Shown here in pieces: positions 36,867-42,587 of a stretch of 42,763 nt of DNA. Under the pieces are notes generated by a model, which had not been told where the DNA came from, made no database searches, and worked only from the letters and a program-made list of their open reading frames with translations. How positions within the stretch are numbered: position 1 is the stretch's first letter; each line of letters starts with the position of its first letter. Location: positions 121,164-163,926 of the forward strand of contig JAKQEM010000024.1 of assembly GCA_029558515.1 (NCBI GenBank). Reading direction: 5' to 3'. Source of the DNA: a bacterium (GTDB lineage Bacteria > Patescibacteriota > Gracilibacteria > Peribacterales > Peribacteraceae). The translations under genes and the position numbers were made by a program.

Positions 36867-37772
36867 ATGTCATTCCTCCGTTTCTCCCGGCTCGCCCTTC
36901 CGCTCTCCGCGCTGCTGATCGTGGCGTCCTTCGTCGTTTTTTTCTCGCCGGGGCCGCAGGTGGGCATCGAATTCACGGGCGGCACGCTCATGGAACTGTC
37001 GCTGCCGGAGACCGCAACCCAGGAAGATCTCTCCGCCGCGGTCGCTTCTTTCCAGCGGGAAGGCGCACCTCTCCAGGGCGTTACGATCGCCCGCACACGC
37101 ACGGACAGCTACTTCCTCCGTACGCCGACCCTGAGCAGTGACGACCACACCGTCTTCCTCGCACACATCGAATCCTCCCTGGGAGAGGTGCAGGAACAGC
37201 AGTACACGACCATCGGCCCCACGGTGGGAAGCACCTTGCAGAAACGTGCTCTCTGGGCGCTGGTTGCGGCGGGCCTCGCGATCGTCCTCTACCTTGCCAT
37301 CGCCTTCCGCAAGATCCCCCGGCATCTGAGTCCGTGGAGTTTCGGCATCAGCGCCATCATCGCCCTCCTCCACGATGTCATCATCACCATCGGACTCTTC
37401 ACCGTCCTCAGCTGGTACACCACGTTCCAGATCGACACGCTCTTCATCACGGCGCTCCTCAGCATCATGGGGTACTCCGTGAGCGACACCATCGTCATCT
37501 TCGACCGCATCCGCGACAACCTGCTCCTGGAAGGGAGGAAGGGCGCGACCTTCGACGTCATCGCCGAACGCAGCCTGCTGCAGAGCTTCACCCGCACCAT
37601 CAATACGGGGCTCGGCGCACTCATCATGCTCTTCGCCCTCTTCTTCTTCGGATCGGAAAGTATCCGCTGGTTCATCCTCGCGCTCATCGCCGGCACGATC
37701 ATCGGCACCTACTCTTCCTACTTCGTCGCAACGCCGCTCTTGGTGCTGTGGCAGAAATGGAGGAAGAGTTGA
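36867..37772 (+). CDS. secF: Protein translocase subunit SecF
   Basis: 301 residues, normal for SecF, which with SecD uses the proton gradient to help export through SecYEG. TM1 about 9-27, then VGIEFTGGTLMELSLPE (about 33-49; the conserved FTGGT motif), an extracytoplasmic head domain to about 120, and five further membrane helices. The signature LLSIMGYSVSDTIVIFDRI (about 197-215) followed by RDN is intact. The end YFVATPLLVLWQKWRKS is repeated in diverged form at 39909-39969. secD is not adjacent: the upstream gene is a DUF3352-like protein, so secD must lie elsewhere. The toxin-antitoxin island starts right after the stop. Confidence 0.96.
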   Translation: MSFLRFSRLALPLSALLIVASFVVFFSPGPQVGIEFTGGTLMELSLPETATQEDLSAAVASFQREGAPLQGVTIARTRTDSYFLRTPTLSSDDHTVFLAHIESSLGEVQEQQYTTIGPTVGSTLQKRALWALVAAGLAIVLYLAIAFRKIPRHLSPWSFGISAIIALLHDVIITIGLFTVLSWYTTFQIDTLFITALLSIMGYSVSDTIVIFDRIRDNLLLEGRKGATFDVIAERSLLQSFTRTINTGLGALIMLFALFFFGSESIRWFILALIAGTIIGTYSSYFVATPLLVLWQKWRKS

Positions 37773-37792
37773 GGGTGAAGAGTAAAGAATAA
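37770..37792 (+). repeat. Short heptad spacer after secF
   Basis: Units GTTGAGG, GTGAAGA and GTAAAGA overlap the secF stop. Nearly the same units follow the secF-like fragment at 39964-39985. Confidence 0.4.
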
Positions 37793-38146
37793 TTACGACA
37801 AGGCAAAATGGGATCGCAGGTATGCTTTGATCTGTTCACCCCACTCACTGTCCAGATCACCGATCTTCTTCAGAAATCGTGAACGATCAAAACTGTGAAT
37901 GTGTTGTACTTTGACCAGTGTCGGTTTCCAGAGATGATTGCGCTCCGAGACAGGGATAAGAATGTCATACTCCCAACGCCTCTCTTTGTACGAACTCATC
38001 AACATCACGGTATACAGACCCTCACTCTTCGGAAGCCAATTCGCCTGTATCACCACGGCAGGTCTCTTGCCATGATACTCCCTGCCCACACTCGGATCAC
38101 TCTTCACCAGCCAAATTTCCAGAGGGTTGATCCGGCTAAAGGACAT
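37793..38146 (-). CDS. MazF/PemK-like mRNA interferase toxin
   Basis: 117 residues from ATG 38144-38146 (MSFSRINPLEIWLVK). The N-terminal pattern INPLEIWLVKSDPSVGREYHG then KRPAVVIQANWL is that of the MazF/PemK SH3-like barrel, with the Arg of GKRPAVVI in the active-site loop region. TVMLMSSYKERRWEYDILIP and TLVKVQHIHSFDRSRFLKK match the second half, and the length equals the family's. These toxins cut mRNA at short motifs and stop growth. It begins 11 bases inside the end of the upstream antitoxin gene (stop 38136-38138), a toxin-second order with translational coupling. An ATG at 38170 is a longer alternative. Its partner is the XRE-Panacea protein, not a MazE-like antitoxin. Confidence 0.82.
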   Translation of the reverse strand: MSFSRINPLEIWLVKSDPSVGREYHGKRPAVVIQANWLPKSEGLYTVMLMSSYKERRWEYDILIPVSERNHLWKPTLVKVQHIHSFDRSRFLKKIGDLDSEWGEQIKAYLRSHFALS

Positions 38147-39020
38147 GGCTGCGATCGGGAAGATTCTCATAATACCGGAGTTCTTCTGCGGACATCGGTT
38201 CCAAGTGCTGCTCGCTATCCATCGCAGCGGCATCCTGTGCCATGTGCAGCATCTCTGCTTCCGTCCGCAGGGCATAGGGCTCGGTGCGCATGTACACCAA
38301 TTCGTAGTCGATCGGCTGTCGGTGCTCCGTCGCTTCCCACGGCACATCACCATGAACGTACTCTTCAATCTGCGTCGCATTCATCAGACCGAGTTTCTCC
38401 GCGACCTCCTGAATCGTTCGATGTTCTTGCGCACTCAAGACGGCGGGATCAGGATCACAGAGCGGAATGTAGCGTGTTTGAGGCATCCCGAAATACTCAT
38501 GCAATACTTTGTTCAGCTGCTGCGCTTGCAGCATCTTCTCCACCACGGGAACAAAATGACTTAGCTGCGGAACAGGACCGAATTGCATGCGCTTGTACGT
38601 CATGCCGGTGATGGACTGTCCCGTTTTCTCGTAGTGATTGAAGTCGCAAAAATAAAGAAGCTTGTAGAGCACGGTCTCCCCCACGTTCGCATGTCCGCCG
38701 ACGAATTGCAAAAGCGTGAGGAGCAATTGACGCAACTTTTCGGGTTGGAAACGAACACCGGACTGCATCGTCTTCTCCTGTGGCTGTTTGCGCTGAGGTG
38801 CAAGAATATCGTCATAACTGATCTGCAGAAAGTTTGCGAGCGTATCAAGCTCCACCGCAGTCAGATCGCGCTTCCCCTGCTCCAGAAGTGAAATCGTCTG
38901 ACGATGTACGCCAAGAGCCTTTGCGACATCGTCCTGCGAAAGCTCACGATCCAGGCGAATCTTGCGTATGCGGATGCCTATTTCCTTTGGAGAAATGCCA
39001 ACCATACGCGCACGGTACAT
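38136..39020 (-). CDS. XRE-HTH / Panacea (DUF4065, SocA-like) antitoxin and repressor
   Basis: 294 residues from ATG 39018-39020; a second in-frame ATG lies at 39003-39005. The N-terminal XRE helix-turn-helix is IRKIRLDRELSQDDVAKALG then VHRQTISLLEQGKRDLTAVE (about 15-55). A basic linker (APQRKQPQEKT) leads to the Panacea domain from about 95: LLLTLLQFVGGHANVGETV, LYKLLYFCDFNHYEKTGQSI, GMTYKRMQFGPVPQLSHFVP. Panacea domains are known as promiscuous antitoxin modules that pair with many toxin folds. The C-terminal 90 residues are acidic. It overlaps the MazF-like gene by 11 bases. It probably represses its own promoter, where a GTTGCAAC palindrome (39034-39041) lies between the -10 and -35 boxes. 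Confidence 0.85.
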   Translation of the reverse strand: MYRARMVGISPKEIGIRIRKIRLDRELSQDDVAKALGVHRQTISLLEQGKRDLTAVELDTLANFLQISYDDILAPQRKQPQEKTMQSGVRFQPEKLRQLLLTLLQFVGGHANVGETVLYKLLYFCDFNHYEKTGQSITGMTYKRMQFGPVPQLSHFVPVVEKMLQAQQLNKVLHEYFGMPQTRYIPLCDPDPAVLSAQEHRTIQEVAEKLGLMNATQIEEYVHGDVPWEATEHRQPIDYELVYMRTEPYALRTEAEMLHMAQDAAAMDSEQHLEPMSAEELRYYENLPDRSHVL

Positions 39021-39026
39021 GATGCA

Positions 39027-39055
39027 ATCTTTTGTTGCAACGTTTTTATTGACAA
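39027..39055 (-). promoter_or_regulatory. Promoter of the first toxin-antitoxin pair
   Basis: On the minus strand TTGTCA (39050-39055), 17 bases, AAAGAT (39027-39032), 6 bases, ATG 39020. The spacer contains the palindrome GTTGCAAC (39034-39041), a possible operator. The -35 overlaps that of the divergent promoter. Confidence 0.6.
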
Positions 39056-39077
39056 GTATTCTGACGTGAAATATTAT
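39049..39077 (+). promoter_or_regulatory. Near-consensus leaderless promoter TTGACA-17-TATTAT
   Basis: TTGACA (39049-39054), 17 bases, TATTAT (39072-39077), then 6 bases to ATG 39084. It is the strongest promoter by consensus in the window and shares TGACA bases with the -35 of the divergent antitoxin promoter. Confidence 0.8.
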
Positions 39078-39083
39078 AAATGC

Positions 39084-39254
39084 ATGGCAACTAATCCACC
39101 AAAAGGTGACAAGCACAGACAGGGGGCTGTCCGTAACCGCACTCAATTCCTTAATCCTCTGACTGGCAAATGGACTAAGCAAGATACTGAAACCAGCAAG
39201 ATCCTGGATGTAAAGGCTGATAATTGCCCATTCAAGGGGGTGCGAAAGAAATAG
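39084..39254 (+). CDS. Small basic protein of a conserved uncharacterised family
   Basis: 56 residues from ATG 39084: it begins MATNPPKGDKHRQGAVRNRT, continues QFLNPLTGKWTKQDTETSKI and ends DVKADNCPFKGVRKK. The pattern PPKG-x-R-GAV-x-R-(S/T)Q, W-x-K-x-DT-x-T-x-K, DVK, PFKGVRKE is one I have seen in short uncharacterised proteins from many phyla, so this is a real gene despite its size. It is rich in Lys, Arg and Gly with no hydrophobic core, probably disordered or nucleic-acid bound. The promoter upstream is near consensus and the mRNA should be leaderless. The DUF4145 gene follows 23 bases later, probably in one operon. Function unknown. Confidence 0.75.
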   Translation: MATNPPKGDKHRQGAVRNRTQFLNPLTGKWTKQDTETSKILDVKADNCPFKGVRKK

Positions 39255-39277
39255 TTTTTCAATTTCCCCAATCCTAA

Positions 39278-39886
39278 ATGGAATTTAAAGGACACAGGTC
39301 CATATCCAAGCACGACGGCAGTACACATGATGCATGGCTGGAATATATATGCGGACACTGCAATACAAAGGTCTCTGGGGCCGTAATTTGTACCGAACAT
39401 AACAGTAGACCATTTATTAAATGGCTCCTTTGTCCCAATTGCAATAATGGCTCAGTGCAAGCGAGAGATGGAAACATATATCCCGGGGTGATGCTTGGTC
39501 CAAATATTGAAGGATTGCCTGAAGATATTCATTCCTCATATAACGAGGCAAGAAAATGTATGTCTGTGAATGCCTTTGCAGCAGCGGAATTAATCTGCAG
39601 AAAAACTCTCATGCACATTGCTGTGGAAAAGGGGGCAAAGGAGGGTGATACCTTTGCCAACTACATCGACTTCCTCGCAAATGCAGGTTATGTTACGCCA
39701 CCCATGAAGGGATGGGTCTCTCTGATCAAAGATCACGGCAATAATTCCACGCATAAACTTGAAAAAGTTGAAAAGGATCGTGCGGAGGGAACGGTTATGT
39801 TTACAGCCGAACTACTCAGATTGATTTACGAGATGGCTCACATGTCGAAGAAGTACAGTCCTCCAAAAAATGAAACTACGAAATAG
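39278..39886 (+). CDS. Zinc-ribbon plus DUF4145 protein
   Basis: 202 residues. The N-terminal part has two Cys pairs, CGHC (about 25-28) and CPNC (about 52-55), which fit a zinc ribbon. From about 75 the DUF4145 pattern appears: GLPEDIHSSYNEARKCMSVN, AFAAAELICRKTLMHIAVEK, TFANYIDFLANAGYVTPPMK, WVSLIKDHGNNSTHKLEKVE, then a closing helix AELLRLIYEMAHMSKKY. DUF4145 domains often occur in or beside restriction enzymes and other defence proteins, and their role is not settled. It is 23 bases after the small protein gene and ends 23 bases before the secF-like fragment. The lower GC matches the rest of the island. A defence-related role is inference. Confidence 0.78.
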   Translation: MEFKGHRSISKHDGSTHDAWLEYICGHCNTKVSGAVICTEHNSRPFIKWLLCPNCNNGSVQARDGNIYPGVMLGPNIEGLPEDIHSSYNEARKCMSVNAFAAAELICRKTLMHIAVEKGAKEGDTFANYIDFLANAGYVTPPMKGWVSLIKDHGNNSTHKLEKVEKDRAEGTVMFTAELLRLIYEMAHMSKKYSPPKNETTK

Positions 39887-39908
39887 CCCCCATACTCTTC
39901 GATCACTG

Positions 39909-39969
39909 CACCTCCTACTTCATCGCCACGCCGCTGCTGGTTGCGTGGCAAGCGTGGAGGAAGAGTTGA
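39909..39969 (+). pseudogene. Diverged duplicate of the secF 3' end
   Basis: The sequence encodes SYFIATPLLVAWQAWRKS and a stop, against SYFVATPLLVLWQKWRKS at the true secF end. About 80% of 69 aligned bases match, including roughly ten bases past the stop. Most changes do not alter chemical character. It has no start and is only a fragment. It suggests that the island carried a foreign secF end or was rearranged next to secF. Confidence 0.75.
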
Positions 39970-39985
39970 GAGTGGAGAGTTGGAC
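39964..39985 (+). repeat. Short heptad run after the secF-like fragment
   Basis: GTTGAGA, GTGGAGA and GTTGGAC parallel the GTTGAGG, GTGAAGA, GTAAAGA units after secF. Confidence 0.4.
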
Positions 39986-39993
39986 GTACTGCA

Positions 39994-40018
39994 AACTTGT
40001 AAGGATTCCTTACAAGTT
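39994..40018. repeat. Perfect 25-base palindrome
   Basis: AACTTGTAAGGA, a central T, and TCCTTACAAGTT. It lies 120 bases before the second toxin gene and 25 bases after the secF-like fragment. It could be a rho-independent-type stem without a T-run, or an operator or recombination site. Confidence 0.7.
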
Positions 40019-40073
40019 CAAGTAAAGAGAGAGAAAAATCACCATTGTCATCGCATGAACGGAAAAAAGATTC

Positions 40074-40113
40074 TTGACAATACCCCTTGCATCTATACCC
40101 TATTGGGTATAAT
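40074..40113 (+). promoter_or_regulatory. Promoter and operator of the second toxin-antitoxin pair
   Basis: TTGACA (40074-40079) is followed at 16 bases by TACCCT (40096-40101), and TATAAT lies at 40108-40113 directly before ATG 40114. The palindrome TATACCC-TATT-GGGTATA (40094-40111) covers the -10 region, where a repressor such as the XRE antitoxin could block transcription. Confidence 0.7.
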
Positions 40114-40560
40114 ATGAATGTCTTCTGCCTCCAAGCCTCCGCGCATCCCAAGGCCTTTGCAAGGCTGCTCGCAGAGCTCGCTCAACAAGAAGATGAAGAC
40201 ACGCTTGCGAAGATCCTTACCACCATCGCTCACGTTGCACGTGTCGGCGGCCACCCACAGGAACCGGCAGCGCGCAGGCTCAGCGGCGTGGACATGTGCG
40301 AAATACGGTCCAAGTACCGCCGCGGCGAACTCATCCGCATCTACTACTTCGTCGATAAAAAAAGCGACAAAATGCTCCTTCTCAATTCCATCATAAAGCC
40401 GGACGGATCGCATAAGCCGTCACGGTACGAGGGGAACGCCGGCAAACGTCTGGAAAAAGACCTTCAAGAATCCATTGCCCTCGCACTTCAACTCAAAGAA
40501 CTTTTCCCTTCTTCCTCTCCTCAATATGACTCCCTCCCCACTCTCCTCCAAACTCTCTAA
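40114..40560 (+). CDS. RelE/HigB-type (phage Gp49-like) toxin
   Basis: 148 residues from ATG 40114. The N-terminal 50 residues are helical (RLLAELAQQEDEDTLAKILT). The toxin core is from about 58: LSGVDMCEIRSKYRRGELIR, IYYFVDKKSDKMLLLNSIIK, then a basic segment PDGSHKPSRYEGNAGKRLEK and a closing helix ESIALALQLKELF. The order strand-Arg-rich loop-strand fits the RelE/ParE/HigB fold in its Gp49-like form. Such toxins cut mRNA on the ribosome. The gene comes before its antitoxin, as in higBA, and overlaps it by 35 bases if the antitoxin starts at 40526. The start is uncertain because TATAAT directly precedes the ATG; an in-frame TTG at 40087 is less likely. Confidence 0.75.
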   Translation: MNVFCLQASAHPKAFARLLAELAQQEDEDTLAKILTTIAHVARVGGHPQEPAARRLSGVDMCEIRSKYRRGELIRIYYFVDKKSDKMLLLNSIIKPDGSHKPSRYEGNAGKRLEKDLQESIALALQLKELFPSSSPQYDSLPTLLQTL

Positions 40561-41227
40561 GATGATGCAATCAGAGAGCTTTCGCGCGAAATCCGCTCAC
40601 CACAAGCGGATGATTCTCCTTGCGGAAAAAATCTTCGGCCGCCGGAAGGATCTTAATTTCTCACAGTGGGAACTCGCTGCAAAAGCAGGAACGACTCAGA
40701 GAATTATCAGTGAACTCGAGAATGCATCCTATGCACCGGAAAACGGTATAGGTATGGAACTCTACGACAAGCTTGCAGAGGCTCTGGAAATTGATCGTGA
40801 CTACCTTCTGTCTGACAAAATCGACCGCAAGACGTTTGAACTATATTCATACATCGGTGCAAAGTTGGACTGGCATTGGGACATCATGCAATTCATGAAA
40901 TTACCGTACTTCATCGATCTGGAAATGACAAAAGCGCTTGGTTTTCAACTCTCCAATCTATCGTATATCCGCCACAACTACGGCCCATTCGATAAAAGCA
41001 TGTACGCATACAGAACTCTGTTTGAGGGTAAATCATACGAGCTCCGGCTTTCATATATTCAGGACTTCATGGATGTCATCAACAAAACACTCGACGCTTT
41101 GCCGATACGAAACGGGGAAAAGCTGAAATTATTATCGTATGAAACAGAGCCGATGAAGCGCCTCGGTGCAACGCTTGGTGGAAAAGAGGGATGGAATGAG
41201 AAACTCATGATGAACGCCAAGCAATAA
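40526..41227 (+). CDS. XRE-HTH / Panacea-like antitoxin and repressor
   Basis: 233 residues from ATG 40526 (MTPSPLSSKLSKMMQSESF); ATG 40562, one base after the toxin stop, is an alternative. The helix-turn-helix is LNFSQWELAAKAGTTQRIIS then ELENASYAPENGIGMELYDK (about 48-85). From about 110 a Panacea-type domain reads WDIMQFMKLPYFIDLEMTKA, LGFQLSNLSYIRHNYGPFDK and SMYAYRTLF, matching the K-L-Y-x-x-D ... GP-(V/F) layout of DUF4065. It is more divergent and shorter than the antitoxin at 38136-39020 and only distantly similar to it. It probably neutralises the HigB-like toxin and represses the shared promoter through the palindrome at 40094-40111. Confidence 0.78.
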   Translation: MTPSPLSSKLSKMMQSESFRAKSAHHKRMILLAEKIFGRRKDLNFSQWELAAKAGTTQRIISELENASYAPENGIGMELYDKLAEALEIDRDYLLSDKIDRKTFELYSYIGAKLDWHWDIMQFMKLPYFIDLEMTKALGFQLSNLSYIRHNYGPFDKSMYAYRTLFEGKSYELRLSYIQDFMDVINKTLDALPIRNGEKLKLLSYETEPMKRLGATLGGKEGWNEKLMMNAKQ

Positions 41228-41306: not shown

Positions 41307-42587
41307 ATGCCCGCAACCCCGCCGACCATCGAACGCCTCAAGCAGTCTCGCATCCGGGCCACCGTGACGTTTACCGTGGAGGAAGTGGCGAAAGCCGAGG
41401 AACAGGCGCTGCGGGAGATGGGACAATCCATCATGATCAAGGGGTTTCGGCCGGGACATGCGCCGATCGCAACGGTACGCGAACGTGTCACGAAAGAAGC
41501 GCTGACCGAGCAGACCATCCGCGGACTCATGAAAACGGCGCTCCCCGCGCTCATCGAGGAGCACAAGATCGTCCCCGTCATCCCGCCCAAGGTGGAAGTC
41601 ATCGGCAGAGAACCGATGGTGCTGGCGATTCTCTTCGTCGAGCGACCGGAAGTGACGGTCAAGAATGCCGATACGCTGGCGCCCGCGAAGAAGGAAATCA
41701 CGGTGGACCCAAAAGACGTGGAGCGCGTGATCGAAGGGCTGCGCCGTGAGCACAGACGCAAGCAGGAAGTTGATCGCAGTACGAAGGAAGGCGATGATGT
41801 GACGATCGATTTCTCCGCGACCGATGCGGACGGAAAAGAGATCGCGGGACTGCGCGGGACCGATGAGGAAGTGACGATCGGATCTCAGACATTCCTGCCG
41901 GGATTCGAAGACGCGCTGCAGGGAACGAAGAAAGGCGAGGAGAAAACATTCACCCTGACACTGCCGGAGAAATTCCCCGTGGAGGCGCTGCGCACCAAGC
42001 CCGCGTCGTTTCATGTGACCGTGAAGAAAGTGGAGGAAAACGAGCTGCCGGAACTGACCGACGCCTTCGTGCAGAAGGTCTTCGGACAACCCACGGCGGA
42101 GGCTTTGCGCACGCGAGTGACATCCTCCATCCGCATGCAGGAAGAGCAACACGATCGGATGGAACGCGAGCGAAAATTGCTGGAGGAAATTCGCAAGCGC
42201 ACCACGGTCGACCTTGCCGAGGAACTGCTGGAAACGGAGGTGGGAGACATGGTGCACGAATGGTCAACGCGACTGGAACGGCAGGGCACGACTATCGCGG
42301 AAGCGCTCCGGAAGGAGGGAAAGACCGTGGAACAGGCGGAGCAGGAACTGAAGACACAGGCGCTGGAGCGATGGAAGCTGCGCCTGGGACTGCAGAAACT
42401 CATCGAAATGAAGGCCATCCATGTCACCGAGGAAGAAGTGGAGCAAGCGTTTGCGCAGGCATTGCAGCAGATGCCAAAAGACCGCCAAGAGGATGCGAAG
42501 AAGGAATGGCAGCAGCGCGGTGCGGCATATCAGGAACTGCGCTGGCGGACGCTCGTGGAGAAAGCGATCGATGCGCTGCTGGCATAG
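41307..42587 (+). CDS. tig: Trigger factor (ribosome-associated chaperone, peptidyl-prolyl isomerase)
   Basis: 426 residues, close to the usual 430. The N-terminal ribosome-binding domain carries the signature GFRPGHAPIATVRERV (about 46-61). The FKBP-type PPIase domain follows (about 155-245): EGDDVTIDFSATDADGKEI, TIGSQTFLPGFEDALQGTKK and GEEKTFTLTLPEKFP. The long helical C-terminal chaperone arms run from about 250 (ELPELTDAFVQKVFGQPT) to the end. It binds L23 at the tunnel exit and shields new chains. The start at ATG 41307 follows from family alignment; the in-frame codons upstream are heptad spacer. It follows the toxin-antitoxin island; clpP/clpX, frequent partners, are not in the window. 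Confidence 0.95.
   Translation: MPATPPTIERLKQSRIRATVTFTVEEVAKAEEQALREMGQSIMIKGFRPGHAPIATVRERVTKEALTEQTIRGLMKTALPALIEEHKIVPVIPPKVEVIGREPMVLAILFVERPEVTVKNADTLAPAKKEITVDPKDVERVIEGLRREHRRKQEVDRSTKEGDDVTIDFSATDADGKEIAGLRGTDEEVTIGSQTFLPGFEDALQGTKKGEEKTFTLTLPEKFPVEALRTKPASFHVTVKKVEENELPELTDAFVQKVFGQPTAEALRTRVTSSIRMQEEQHDRMERERKLLEEIRKRTTVDLAEELLETEVGDMVHEWSTRLERQGTTIAEALRKEGKTVEQAEQELKTQALERWKLRLGLQKLIEMKAIHVTEEEVEQAFAQALQQMPKDRQEDAKKEWQQRGAAYQELRWRTLVEKAIDALLA

What the first reader, a model, noticed from the sequence alone, without database searches (positions are those of the whole stretch)
37793..41227. Two unrelated toxins, each paired with its own XRE-Panacea antitoxin, in one 3.4-kb island
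Seen: MazF/PemK-like toxin (37793-38146) overlapping an XRE-Panacea gene (38136-39020) on the minus strand, and a RelE/HigB-Gp49-like toxin (40114-40560) overlapping an XRE-Panacea-like gene (40526-41227) on the plus strand. Gene order is antitoxin-toxin in the first and toxin-antitoxin in the second. Known: Panacea (DUF4065/SocA-like) is a promiscuous antitoxin domain that pairs with many toxin folds. Inference: the same antitoxin architecture has been matched to two RNase folds side by side, a natural test of partner swapping, and the pairs may cross-regulate. The antitoxins are only distantly similar, so this is not a recent tandem duplication.
Basis: partly seen in the sequence, partly recalled or inferred. 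Interest (0 to 1): 0.85.

Follow-up and report, generated by a model that had tools for sequence, protein, structure and literature searches.

The report
Two stacked Panacea toxin-antitoxin modules
In an uncultured, small-genome bacterium, two independent toxin-antitoxin gene pairs that use the same kind of antitoxin were inserted side by side between two housekeeping genes; each pair belongs to a known kind and is probably controlled on its own, but such clusters recur in related bacteria.

Summary
37793-38146/38136-39020 is a MazF/PemK toxin with an XRE-Panacea antitoxin; 40114-40560/40526-41227 is a RelE-fold, HigB/Gp49-type toxin with a second XRE-Panacea antitoxin. A degraded copy of the secF 3' end separates pair 1 (with orf57 and a DUF4145 gene) from pair 2, which suggests two acquisitions. 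Each pair has its own candidate operator: TATACCC-N4-GGGTATA (pair 2, 18/18 in one relative) and TGCAA-N7-TTGCA (pair 1, shared in this genome only with a second MazF-Panacea pair on another contig). Cross-regulation of the two pairs is therefore not supported; between the two MazF-Panacea copies it is plausible. The layout is not unique: in 353 class genomes, 10 of 57 same-genome Panacea pairs (own included) lie within 10 kb, 0.9 expected. A tree shows an apparent partner swap in relatives, not in the window. New members of a known kind; moderate interest.

The parts
36867..37772 (+). secF, left flank; its 3' end carries one copy of the repeat
   Evidence: TIGR00966 247 bits; neighbour of tig in relatives
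37711..37783 (+). secF 3' end, intact copy of the repeat; includes a 16-nt stretch around the stop codon that is identical in both copies
   Evidence: direct repeat D1; 16-nt core read by eye
37793..38146 (-). toxin 1, MazF/PemK family, 117 aa
   Evidence: PF02452 E=4.6e-19
38136..39020 (-). antitoxin 1, XRE HTH plus Panacea, 294 aa; ATG at 39005 is an alternative start (by eye)
   Evidence: PF13274 E=5e-19, HTH_3 8.7e-15
39023..39039 (.). candidate operator 1, TGCAA-N7-TTGCA palindrome
   Evidence: the longer 19-nt form occurs at exactly two places in the genome at up to 1 mismatch, in front of the two MazF-Panacea operons
39049..39077 (+). promoter-like site for orf57, TTGACA-17-TATTAT, 11 of 12
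   Evidence: 2 sites found in the stretch, shuffles mean 3.8, so only suggestive
39084..39254 (+). orf57, 56-aa small basic protein of the phrog_12550 family, also on plasmids and phages
39278..39886 (+). DUF4145 (HEPN-like) protein, 202 aa; similar to PD-T7-4
   Evidence: PF13643 E=5.5e-14; PADLOC PD-T7-4 E=1.4e-7; phrog_1305 E=4.6e-24
39883..39980 (+). secF 3'-end relict (second repeat copy), about 28 codons with stop
   Evidence: 72% over 98 nt; 60.7% aa identity to SecF 274-301; best nucleotide score is to the own secF tail, 63, next 57
39994..40018 (.). 25-nt palindrome (12-bp arms), single copy in the genome; role unknown
40094..40111 (.). candidate operator 2, TATACCC-TATT-GGGTATA, 2 nt before the toxin start
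   Evidence: 18 of 18 kept in G223 while the next 38 nt are 20 of 38; only site in the genome at up to 2 mismatches, reversed control also 1; the promoter scan lists no promoter here
40114..40560 (+). toxin 2, HigB/Gp49-type RelE fold, 148 aa
40526..41227 (+). antitoxin 2, XRE HTH plus Panacea, 233 aa
41307..42587 (+). tig (trigger factor), right flank (searched from 41310)
   Evidence: TIGR00115 307 bits

Best explanation
The island is a stack of two independent type II toxin-antitoxin (PanAT) modules acquired separately between secF and tig. Module 1 (MazF plus XRE-Panacea) came with, or next to, a mobile orf57-DUF4145 unit, and this segment is bracketed by a duplicated secF 3' end. Module 2 (HigB/Gp49 plus XRE-Panacea, toxin gene first) was added between the secF relict and tig. 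Shown by sequence: the families and folds, the insertion, the repeat, the recurring pairings and the palindromes. Inferred: in each module the Panacea domain binds and blocks its own toxin; the XRE domain of the antitoxin (or of the complex) binds the palindrome at the start of its own operon and represses it; when antitoxin falls, MazF cuts mRNA and the HigB-type toxin cuts mRNA on the ribosome, stopping growth. This would serve phage defence or keep the island in place.
For: Insertion: secF-tig gap at most 186 nt in 23 of 26 relatives measured against about 3.5 kb here; GC 0.616 secF, 0.599 tig, 0.520 module 1, 0.438 orf57-DUF4145, 0.488 module 2. Two events: the secF relict lies between DUF4145 and module 2; module 2 relatives stand without module 1 beside them in the stretches fetched. 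Stable pairs: Gp49 is adjacent in 10 of the 15 genomes with a clear antitoxin-2 match, own included; in one of these ten (G170) the toxin frame carries a TAA beyond the recoded TGAs while the antitoxin has none. MazF sits beside 10 of the 30 best antitoxin-1-type loci, own included, and beside a second own copy on contig C39 (antitoxin 74%, MazF 51% identical). Separate candidate operators. Toxin-2 fold. Defence surroundings elsewhere: the C39 copy follows a type III restriction-like operon with an OLD-like gene; module 2 in G223 lies near an Eco57I-type methylase and a PLD-helicase gene.
Against: No integrase was recognised among the six island ORFs scanned, so the mode of insertion is open. 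Toxicity and neutralisation are untested. Toxin 2 and antitoxin 2 miss the Pfam cut-offs as whole proteins; Foldseek found nothing at E <= 0.001 for either model, and the RelE fold rests on the second aligner. The structure searches for antitoxin 2 saw only its HTH. The promoter scan lists no promoter for module 2, nor one on the minus strand for module 1. Perfect 7-4-7 palindromes occur 3 times in the window, about what chance gives; the conservation, not the palindrome, is the evidence, and the palindrome test found this operator in only 3 of 9 module-2 loci (window, G223, G056), the other forms being read by eye. Operator 1 was found in 4 of 11 antitoxin-1-type loci. Two acquisitions could also be one composite event.
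Confidence: 0.7

Rival explanations
1. The two pairs are one cross-regulated unit: each Panacea antitoxin controls or neutralises the other pair too.
For: Same two-domain architecture, about 1.1 kb apart, and clustering of Panacea genes in the class.
Against: Different palindromes, each found in the genome only at its own module(s); recognition helices that differ by eye; about 20% identity in the profile alignment; published cognate specificity (PMC8832971, passages); of the 15 genomes with a clear antitoxin-2 match only G000 has an antitoxin-1-type match (E <= 1e-10) on the same contig.
Confidence: 0.06
2. A recent in-place partner swap or tandem duplication made the second pair from the first.
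For: An apparent change of partner is seen in related loci: antitoxins paired with another small protein lie inside MazF-paired ones (96/94).
Against: The window's second antitoxin belongs to a distant clade (100/100 for 12 rows, 97/96 for the nine Gp49-labelled rows), found across class families including TGA-recoded ones.
Confidence: 0.03
3. The whole 3.5 kb is one small defence island acquired in a single event, with DUF4145 and both toxin pairs acting together against phages; the secF repeat is a scar of that event.
For: DUF4145 resembles the defence protein model PD-T7-4; orf57 relatives directly precede a SIR2-like gene in one genome and a NYN gene in another and sit on plasmids and phages; GC is lower than the flanks throughout.
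Against: The secF relict lies inside the island, between DUF4145 and module 2; GC differs between segments (0.438 to 0.520); no other genome of the 15 with a clear antitoxin-2 match has both antitoxin types on one contig, though most assemblies are fragmented.
Confidence: 0.18

Closest known systems
PanAT systems (Panacea/DUF4065 antitoxins; PMC8832971; NetFlax network, PMC10440598)
   Same: XRE plus Panacea antitoxins beside small toxins; PemK and ParE are named as Panacea partners (PMC8832971, passage); RelE/ParE is among the common folds of the whole network and Panacea gene order is variable (PMC10440598, passages)
   Different: 'Gp49' does not occur in the main text of either; a two-module stack in one insertion and class-wide clustering were not in the passages I saw
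HigBA (toxin-first type II TA, Gp49/RelE-fold toxin with XRE antitoxin; definition recalled)
   Same: Toxin-2 fold, toxin-first order, palindrome before the operon, XRE antitoxin; closest solved fold 6af4/6af3 from S. pneumoniae
   Different: The antitoxin carries an extra C-terminal Panacea domain
MazEF/PemIK (definition recalled)
   Same: Toxin-1 family (PF02452)
   Different: An XRE-Panacea protein stands in the place of MazE/PemI
PD-T7-4 / DUF4145 HEPN-like proteins
   Same: 39278-39886 matches both models; PMC3710099 (passages) puts DUF4145 in the HEPN superfamily
   Different: Function not tested; only the domain match is shown

Membership tests
PanAT (module 1) | Panacea domain in the antitoxin | tested here: met
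   PF13274 69.7 bits against a cut-off of 25.7
PanAT (module 1) | adjacent toxin conserved in other genomes | tested here: met
   MazF adjacent in 10 of the 30 best antitoxin-1-type loci, own included, and in the own second copy
PanAT (module 2) | Panacea domain in the antitoxin | tested here: met
   25.4 bits, just below the cut-off 25.7, as a whole protein but 26.4, over it, in the genome searches; 12 of 12 A1 members match at E <= 0.01; profile match 99.7%
PanAT (module 2) | adjacent toxin conserved in other genomes | tested here: met
   Gp49 adjacent in 10 of 15 genomes with a clear antitoxin-2 match, own included
PanAT (modules 1 and 2) | toxicity of the toxin and neutralisation by the partner | not testable with these tools
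   needs expression tests
MazF/PemK | family profile match over its length | tested here: met
   profile positions 4-108 of 109, E=4.6e-19
MazF/PemK | sequence-specific mRNA cleavage | not testable with these tools
   -
HigB/Gp49 (RelE superfamily) | RelE fold | tested here: met
   AlphaFold model pLDDT 94.2; 6af4/6af3 Z 13.0, RelE Z 9.7 by VIA-align 2; Foldseek alone weak, best E 0.04
HigB/Gp49 (RelE superfamily) | Gp49 profile match over the curated cut-off | tested here: inconclusive
   20.3 against 23.9 bits for the window protein; 9 of 9 A2 members match at E <= 0.01
HigB/Gp49 (RelE superfamily) | ribosome-dependent mRNA cleavage | not testable with these tools
   -
autoregulated type II operon (module 2) | conserved palindrome in the promoter region, bound by the antitoxin | tested here: inconclusive
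   palindrome kept 18/18 in G223 and as ATACCC-N4-GGGTAT in G056, but found by the palindrome test in 3 of 9 loci only, and no promoter is listed by the scan; binding not tested
site-specific integrative element | integrase gene and att repeats | tested here: inconclusive
   secF-tail repeat present; no integrase match among the six island ORFs scanned with Pfam
PD-T7-4 defence protein | profile match | tested here: met
   29.2 bits, E=1.4e-7; that library gives no cut-off and function is untested

The most novel reading that the evidence does not exclude
In this class of Patescibacteria, Panacea clusters are nurseries of partner change: Panacea genes attract or give rise to further Panacea genes next to them, and one copy then takes a different toxin while the parent pair stays beside it. 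The window is an island where two anciently separated lineages have met; G265, G275 and G282 show the younger stage, where a MazF-paired antitoxin and a relative from the nested, other-partner group sit within a few kb.
Probability: 0.2. Interest if true: 0.65.

Novelty: new member of a known kind. Interest (0 to 1): 0.42.

Why it matters
How one antitoxin domain moves between unrelated toxins is open. Natural side-by-side pairs in near-minimal genomes, with a tree that marks where the partner seems to have changed, give defined material for that question. The HigB/Gp49-Panacea pair, found on both sides of a genetic-code change, is a clean family to test, and the clustering of Panacea genes (10 of 57 same-genome pairs against 0.9 expected) is a pattern that can be checked in other phyla.

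Tried and rejected
Plasmid and phage searches with antitoxin 2 and IMG/VR scans with both module-2 alignments found no relative. Structure searches with antitoxin 2 returned only HTH proteins among the rows shown, so the Panacea half rests on profiles. The idea that orf57 is a dedicated partner of Panacea genes was dropped: a Panacea gene lies near it in 2 of the 7 genomes with a hit, own included; I listed the ORFs beside it for 3 of the other 5 and looked at 8 of the 76 plasmid and phage records, where the neighbours differ. A further partial orf57 match lies beside an antitoxin-1-type gene in G223 (L086). The 25-nt palindrome at 39994 as a repeated site was dropped: single copy. A TGNAA-N7-TTNCA operator for all antitoxin-1-type loci was dropped: present in 4 of 11 (one of the 11, L079, had no MazF match), two of the four at another distance from the start; the same pattern also occurs at 39998 in the window. 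The genes upstream of the antitoxins in L044, L047 and L048 could not be named (Gp49 E=0.095 for one, none for the others). The partner-like genes in the Panacea clusters have no Pfam or NCBIfam match of weight and only weak PHROGs ones; the labels 'RelE-like' and 'third' are my reading. In one search row L038 was labelled Gp49 although no intact toxin was found beside it, row L133b (weak MazF) is a long branch, the root is the midpoint, and the direction of the partner change depends on it. For one search: the 10-kb limit was chosen after I had seen clusters, the own pair is among the 10, G274 and G275 are of one genus, duplication alone could make neighbours, and the position rows were copied by hand.
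Full report
What is there. On the minus strand, 38136-39020 codes for an XRE-Panacea protein followed by a MazF/PemK toxin at 37793-38146, overlapping by 11 nt. On the plus strand, a 148-aa protein at 40114-40560 precedes a second XRE-Panacea protein at 40526-41227, overlapping by 35 nt. Pfam is clear for pair 1 and weak for pair 2. The weak assignments were tested with relatives: 12 of 12 members of the antitoxin-2 alignment match SocA_Panacea, 9 of 9 members of the toxin-2 alignment match Gp49, and the profiles of the two antitoxin groups align over residues 30-213 with 99.7% probability. The toxin-2 model (pLDDT 94.2) has a RelE fold by VIA-align 2: the best rows are the S. pneumoniae toxin 6af4/6af3 (Z 13.0), then ribosome-bound RelE (Z 9.7). 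Foldseek alone gave only weak E-values (best 0.04).

The surroundings. Left of the island is secF (36867-37772), right is tig (41307-42587). Of the 54 relatives with a tig match I held loci of 29. In 26 of them both genes could be measured, and the gap is at most 186 nt in 23; G003, G023 and G012 have 1.0, 1.2 and 2.6 kb there; three loci (L025, L031, L033) gave no value (rows L104 and L105 are longer stretches of G023 and G012). The three ORFs examined in the gaps of G023 and G012 have no Pfam match. In the window the gap is about 3.5 kb. GC is 0.616 in secF, 0.599 in tig, and 0.520, 0.438 and 0.488 in pair 1, orf57-DUF4145 and pair 2. So the 3.5 kb is inserted DNA. In another family (G338) a Gp49-like gene (20.8 bits, below the cut-off) with a short XRE gene lies upstream of tig, with one small ORF between: the neighbourhood of tig seems to have taken up toxin-antitoxin genes at least twice.

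The scar. Repeat search shows the last 98 nt around the secF end repeated at 39883-39980, 72% alike. The second copy still reads as the SecF C-terminus up to its stop (60.7% identity over 28 residues), and of the secF tails compared it scores best against the own one (63; next 57). Sixteen nucleotides around the stop codon are identical in both copies (by eye). The copies bracket pair 1, orf57 and DUF4145; pair 2 lies outside, between the relict and tig. This looks like insertion at the 3' end of a gene, with the displaced end left on the far side. No integrase was recognised, so the mechanism stays open.

The extra genes. orf57 (39084-39254) is a 56-aa basic protein of phrog_12550, found in 7 of 242 class genomes, own included, in 60 plasmid records and 16 phage records. 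In one relative it lies just before a SIR2-like gene and in another just before a NYN gene. The DUF4145 gene matches the PD-T7-4 defence model; PMC3710099 (passages) places DUF4145 in the HEPN superfamily.

How each pair probably works. Pair 2 has a perfect palindrome, TATACCC-TATT-GGGTATA, ending 2 nt before the toxin start. Such 7-4-7 palindromes occur three times in the window, about what chance gives, so the palindrome alone says little. But in G223 all 18 nt are the same, while the 38 nt before it match at only 20 and the toxin gene at 310 of 437 alignment columns, and G056 keeps ATACCC-N4-GGGTAT. In the other six loci compared, the palindrome test does not find it; related forms there are read by eye only. 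It is the only such site in the genome at up to two mismatches; the reversed control pattern also had one match. The promoter scan lists no promoter for this operon. Pair 1 has GTTGCAA-NN-AAA-NN-TTGCA at its start; the genome holds exactly two such sites at up to one mismatch, in front of this operon and of a second MazF-Panacea operon on contig C39, with no control match. That second copy (antitoxin 74%, MazF 51% identical) follows genes for a DNA methylase, an OLD-like ATPase and a type III Res protein. So the likelier cross-talk is between the two MazF-Panacea copies, not between the two pairs of the finding. That Panacea blocks the toxin directly, and that MazF and HigB-type toxins cut mRNA, is taken from the families and inferred here.

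History of the pairings. Clear relatives of antitoxin 2 (E <= 1e-17) occur in 15 of 353 class genomes, own included, and Gp49 is beside 10 of them; a Gp49 search of 288 genomes found 8, own included. In G170 the toxin frame is interrupted while the antitoxin is open, and in G174 no intact toxin was found. Nine of the 15 carry several in-frame TGA codons, as in lineages that read TGA as an amino acid; the records found by name are Gracilibacteria, Absconditabacterales and Peregrinibacteria. So the pair exists on both sides of a change of genetic code. In a tree of 33 Panacea antitoxins the nine Gp49-labelled ones form one clade (97/96). The MazF label needs three changes, at least two forced by well-supported branches, because antitoxins paired with an unnamed small protein nest among MazF-paired ones (96/94). 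That is an apparent partner change in relatives, not in the window.

Is the layout special? A Panacea search of 353 class genomes gave 141 matches in 103 genomes. Of 57 same-genome pairs, 10, the own pair included, lie within 10 kb on one contig; 0.93 are expected if placement is random (the limit was set after clusters had been seen, and related genomes or duplications are not corrected for). G265, G275 and G282 hold a MazF-Panacea pair near a Panacea pair with another small partner gene; G261, G274 and G292 hold other combinations; G101 has two Panacea genes with one weak MazF; G041 was not examined. Of the 15 genomes with a clear antitoxin-2 match, only G000 has an antitoxin-1-type match (E <= 1e-10) on the same contig; most assemblies are fragmented.

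Literature. PMC8832971 (passages) names PemK and ParE among Panacea partners and reports cognate specificity; PMC10440598 (passages) reports variable gene order for Panacea and RelE/ParE among the common folds of its network. 'Gp49' does not occur in the main text of either. Searches for Panacea with antitoxin, DUF4065 with HigB, toxin-antitoxin with Gracilibacteria and Peregrinibacteria and Panacea with RelE listed no paper whose title or shown abstract start describes such clusters in this group; I read passages of PMC7556043, where the HigB-like and DUF4065 genes are separate. This is not proof that none exists.

Verdict. Observation confirmed; interpretation partly supported. Two known kinds of module, new members, stacked most likely by separate insertions and most likely independent. 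Interest is moderate because of the recurring HigB/Gp49-Panacea family and the class-wide clustering of Panacea genes.

Noticed in passing
window 39084-39254; L116, L117, L118, L122-L129: orf57 (phrog_12550), a small basic protein on plasmids and phages of several phyla, directly before a SIR2-like, a NYN or a DUF4145 gene in three genomes and divergent from a WYL gene on two plasmids; no function known.
   Followed up: partly
L103:426-1206: In G338 (another family) a Gp49-like gene (below the Pfam cut-off) and a short XRE gene lie upstream of tig, perhaps an independent toxin-antitoxin arrival near trigger factor.
   Followed up: partly
L102:985-10033: The module-2 relative in G223 lies near an Eco57I-type methylase and a PLD-helicase gene, a defence-island-like setting.
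   Followed up: partly
L138:4697-12116: The own second MazF-Panacea copy on C39 follows genes for a DNA methylase, an OLD-like ATPase and a type III Res protein.
   Followed up: partly
L130, L131, L132, L134, L135, L136: Small proteins of about 112-139 aa sit beside Panacea antitoxins in several genomes; those scanned have no Pfam or NCBIfam match of weight: candidate unnamed Panacea partners.
   Followed up: partly
L038, L040 (G174, G170): Antitoxin-2 genes that stay open while the toxin gene beside them was not found intact or is interrupted (could be assembly error).
   Followed up: partly
window 39994-40018: A 25-nt palindrome with 12-bp arms, single copy in the genome, between the secF relict and module 2.
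   Followed up: partly
L105:5367-7797, L104:4375-5334: Two other relatives carry unnamed ORFs (384 and 389 aa; 319 aa; no Pfam match) at the same secF-tig junction, so it may be an insertion hot spot.
   Followed up: partly
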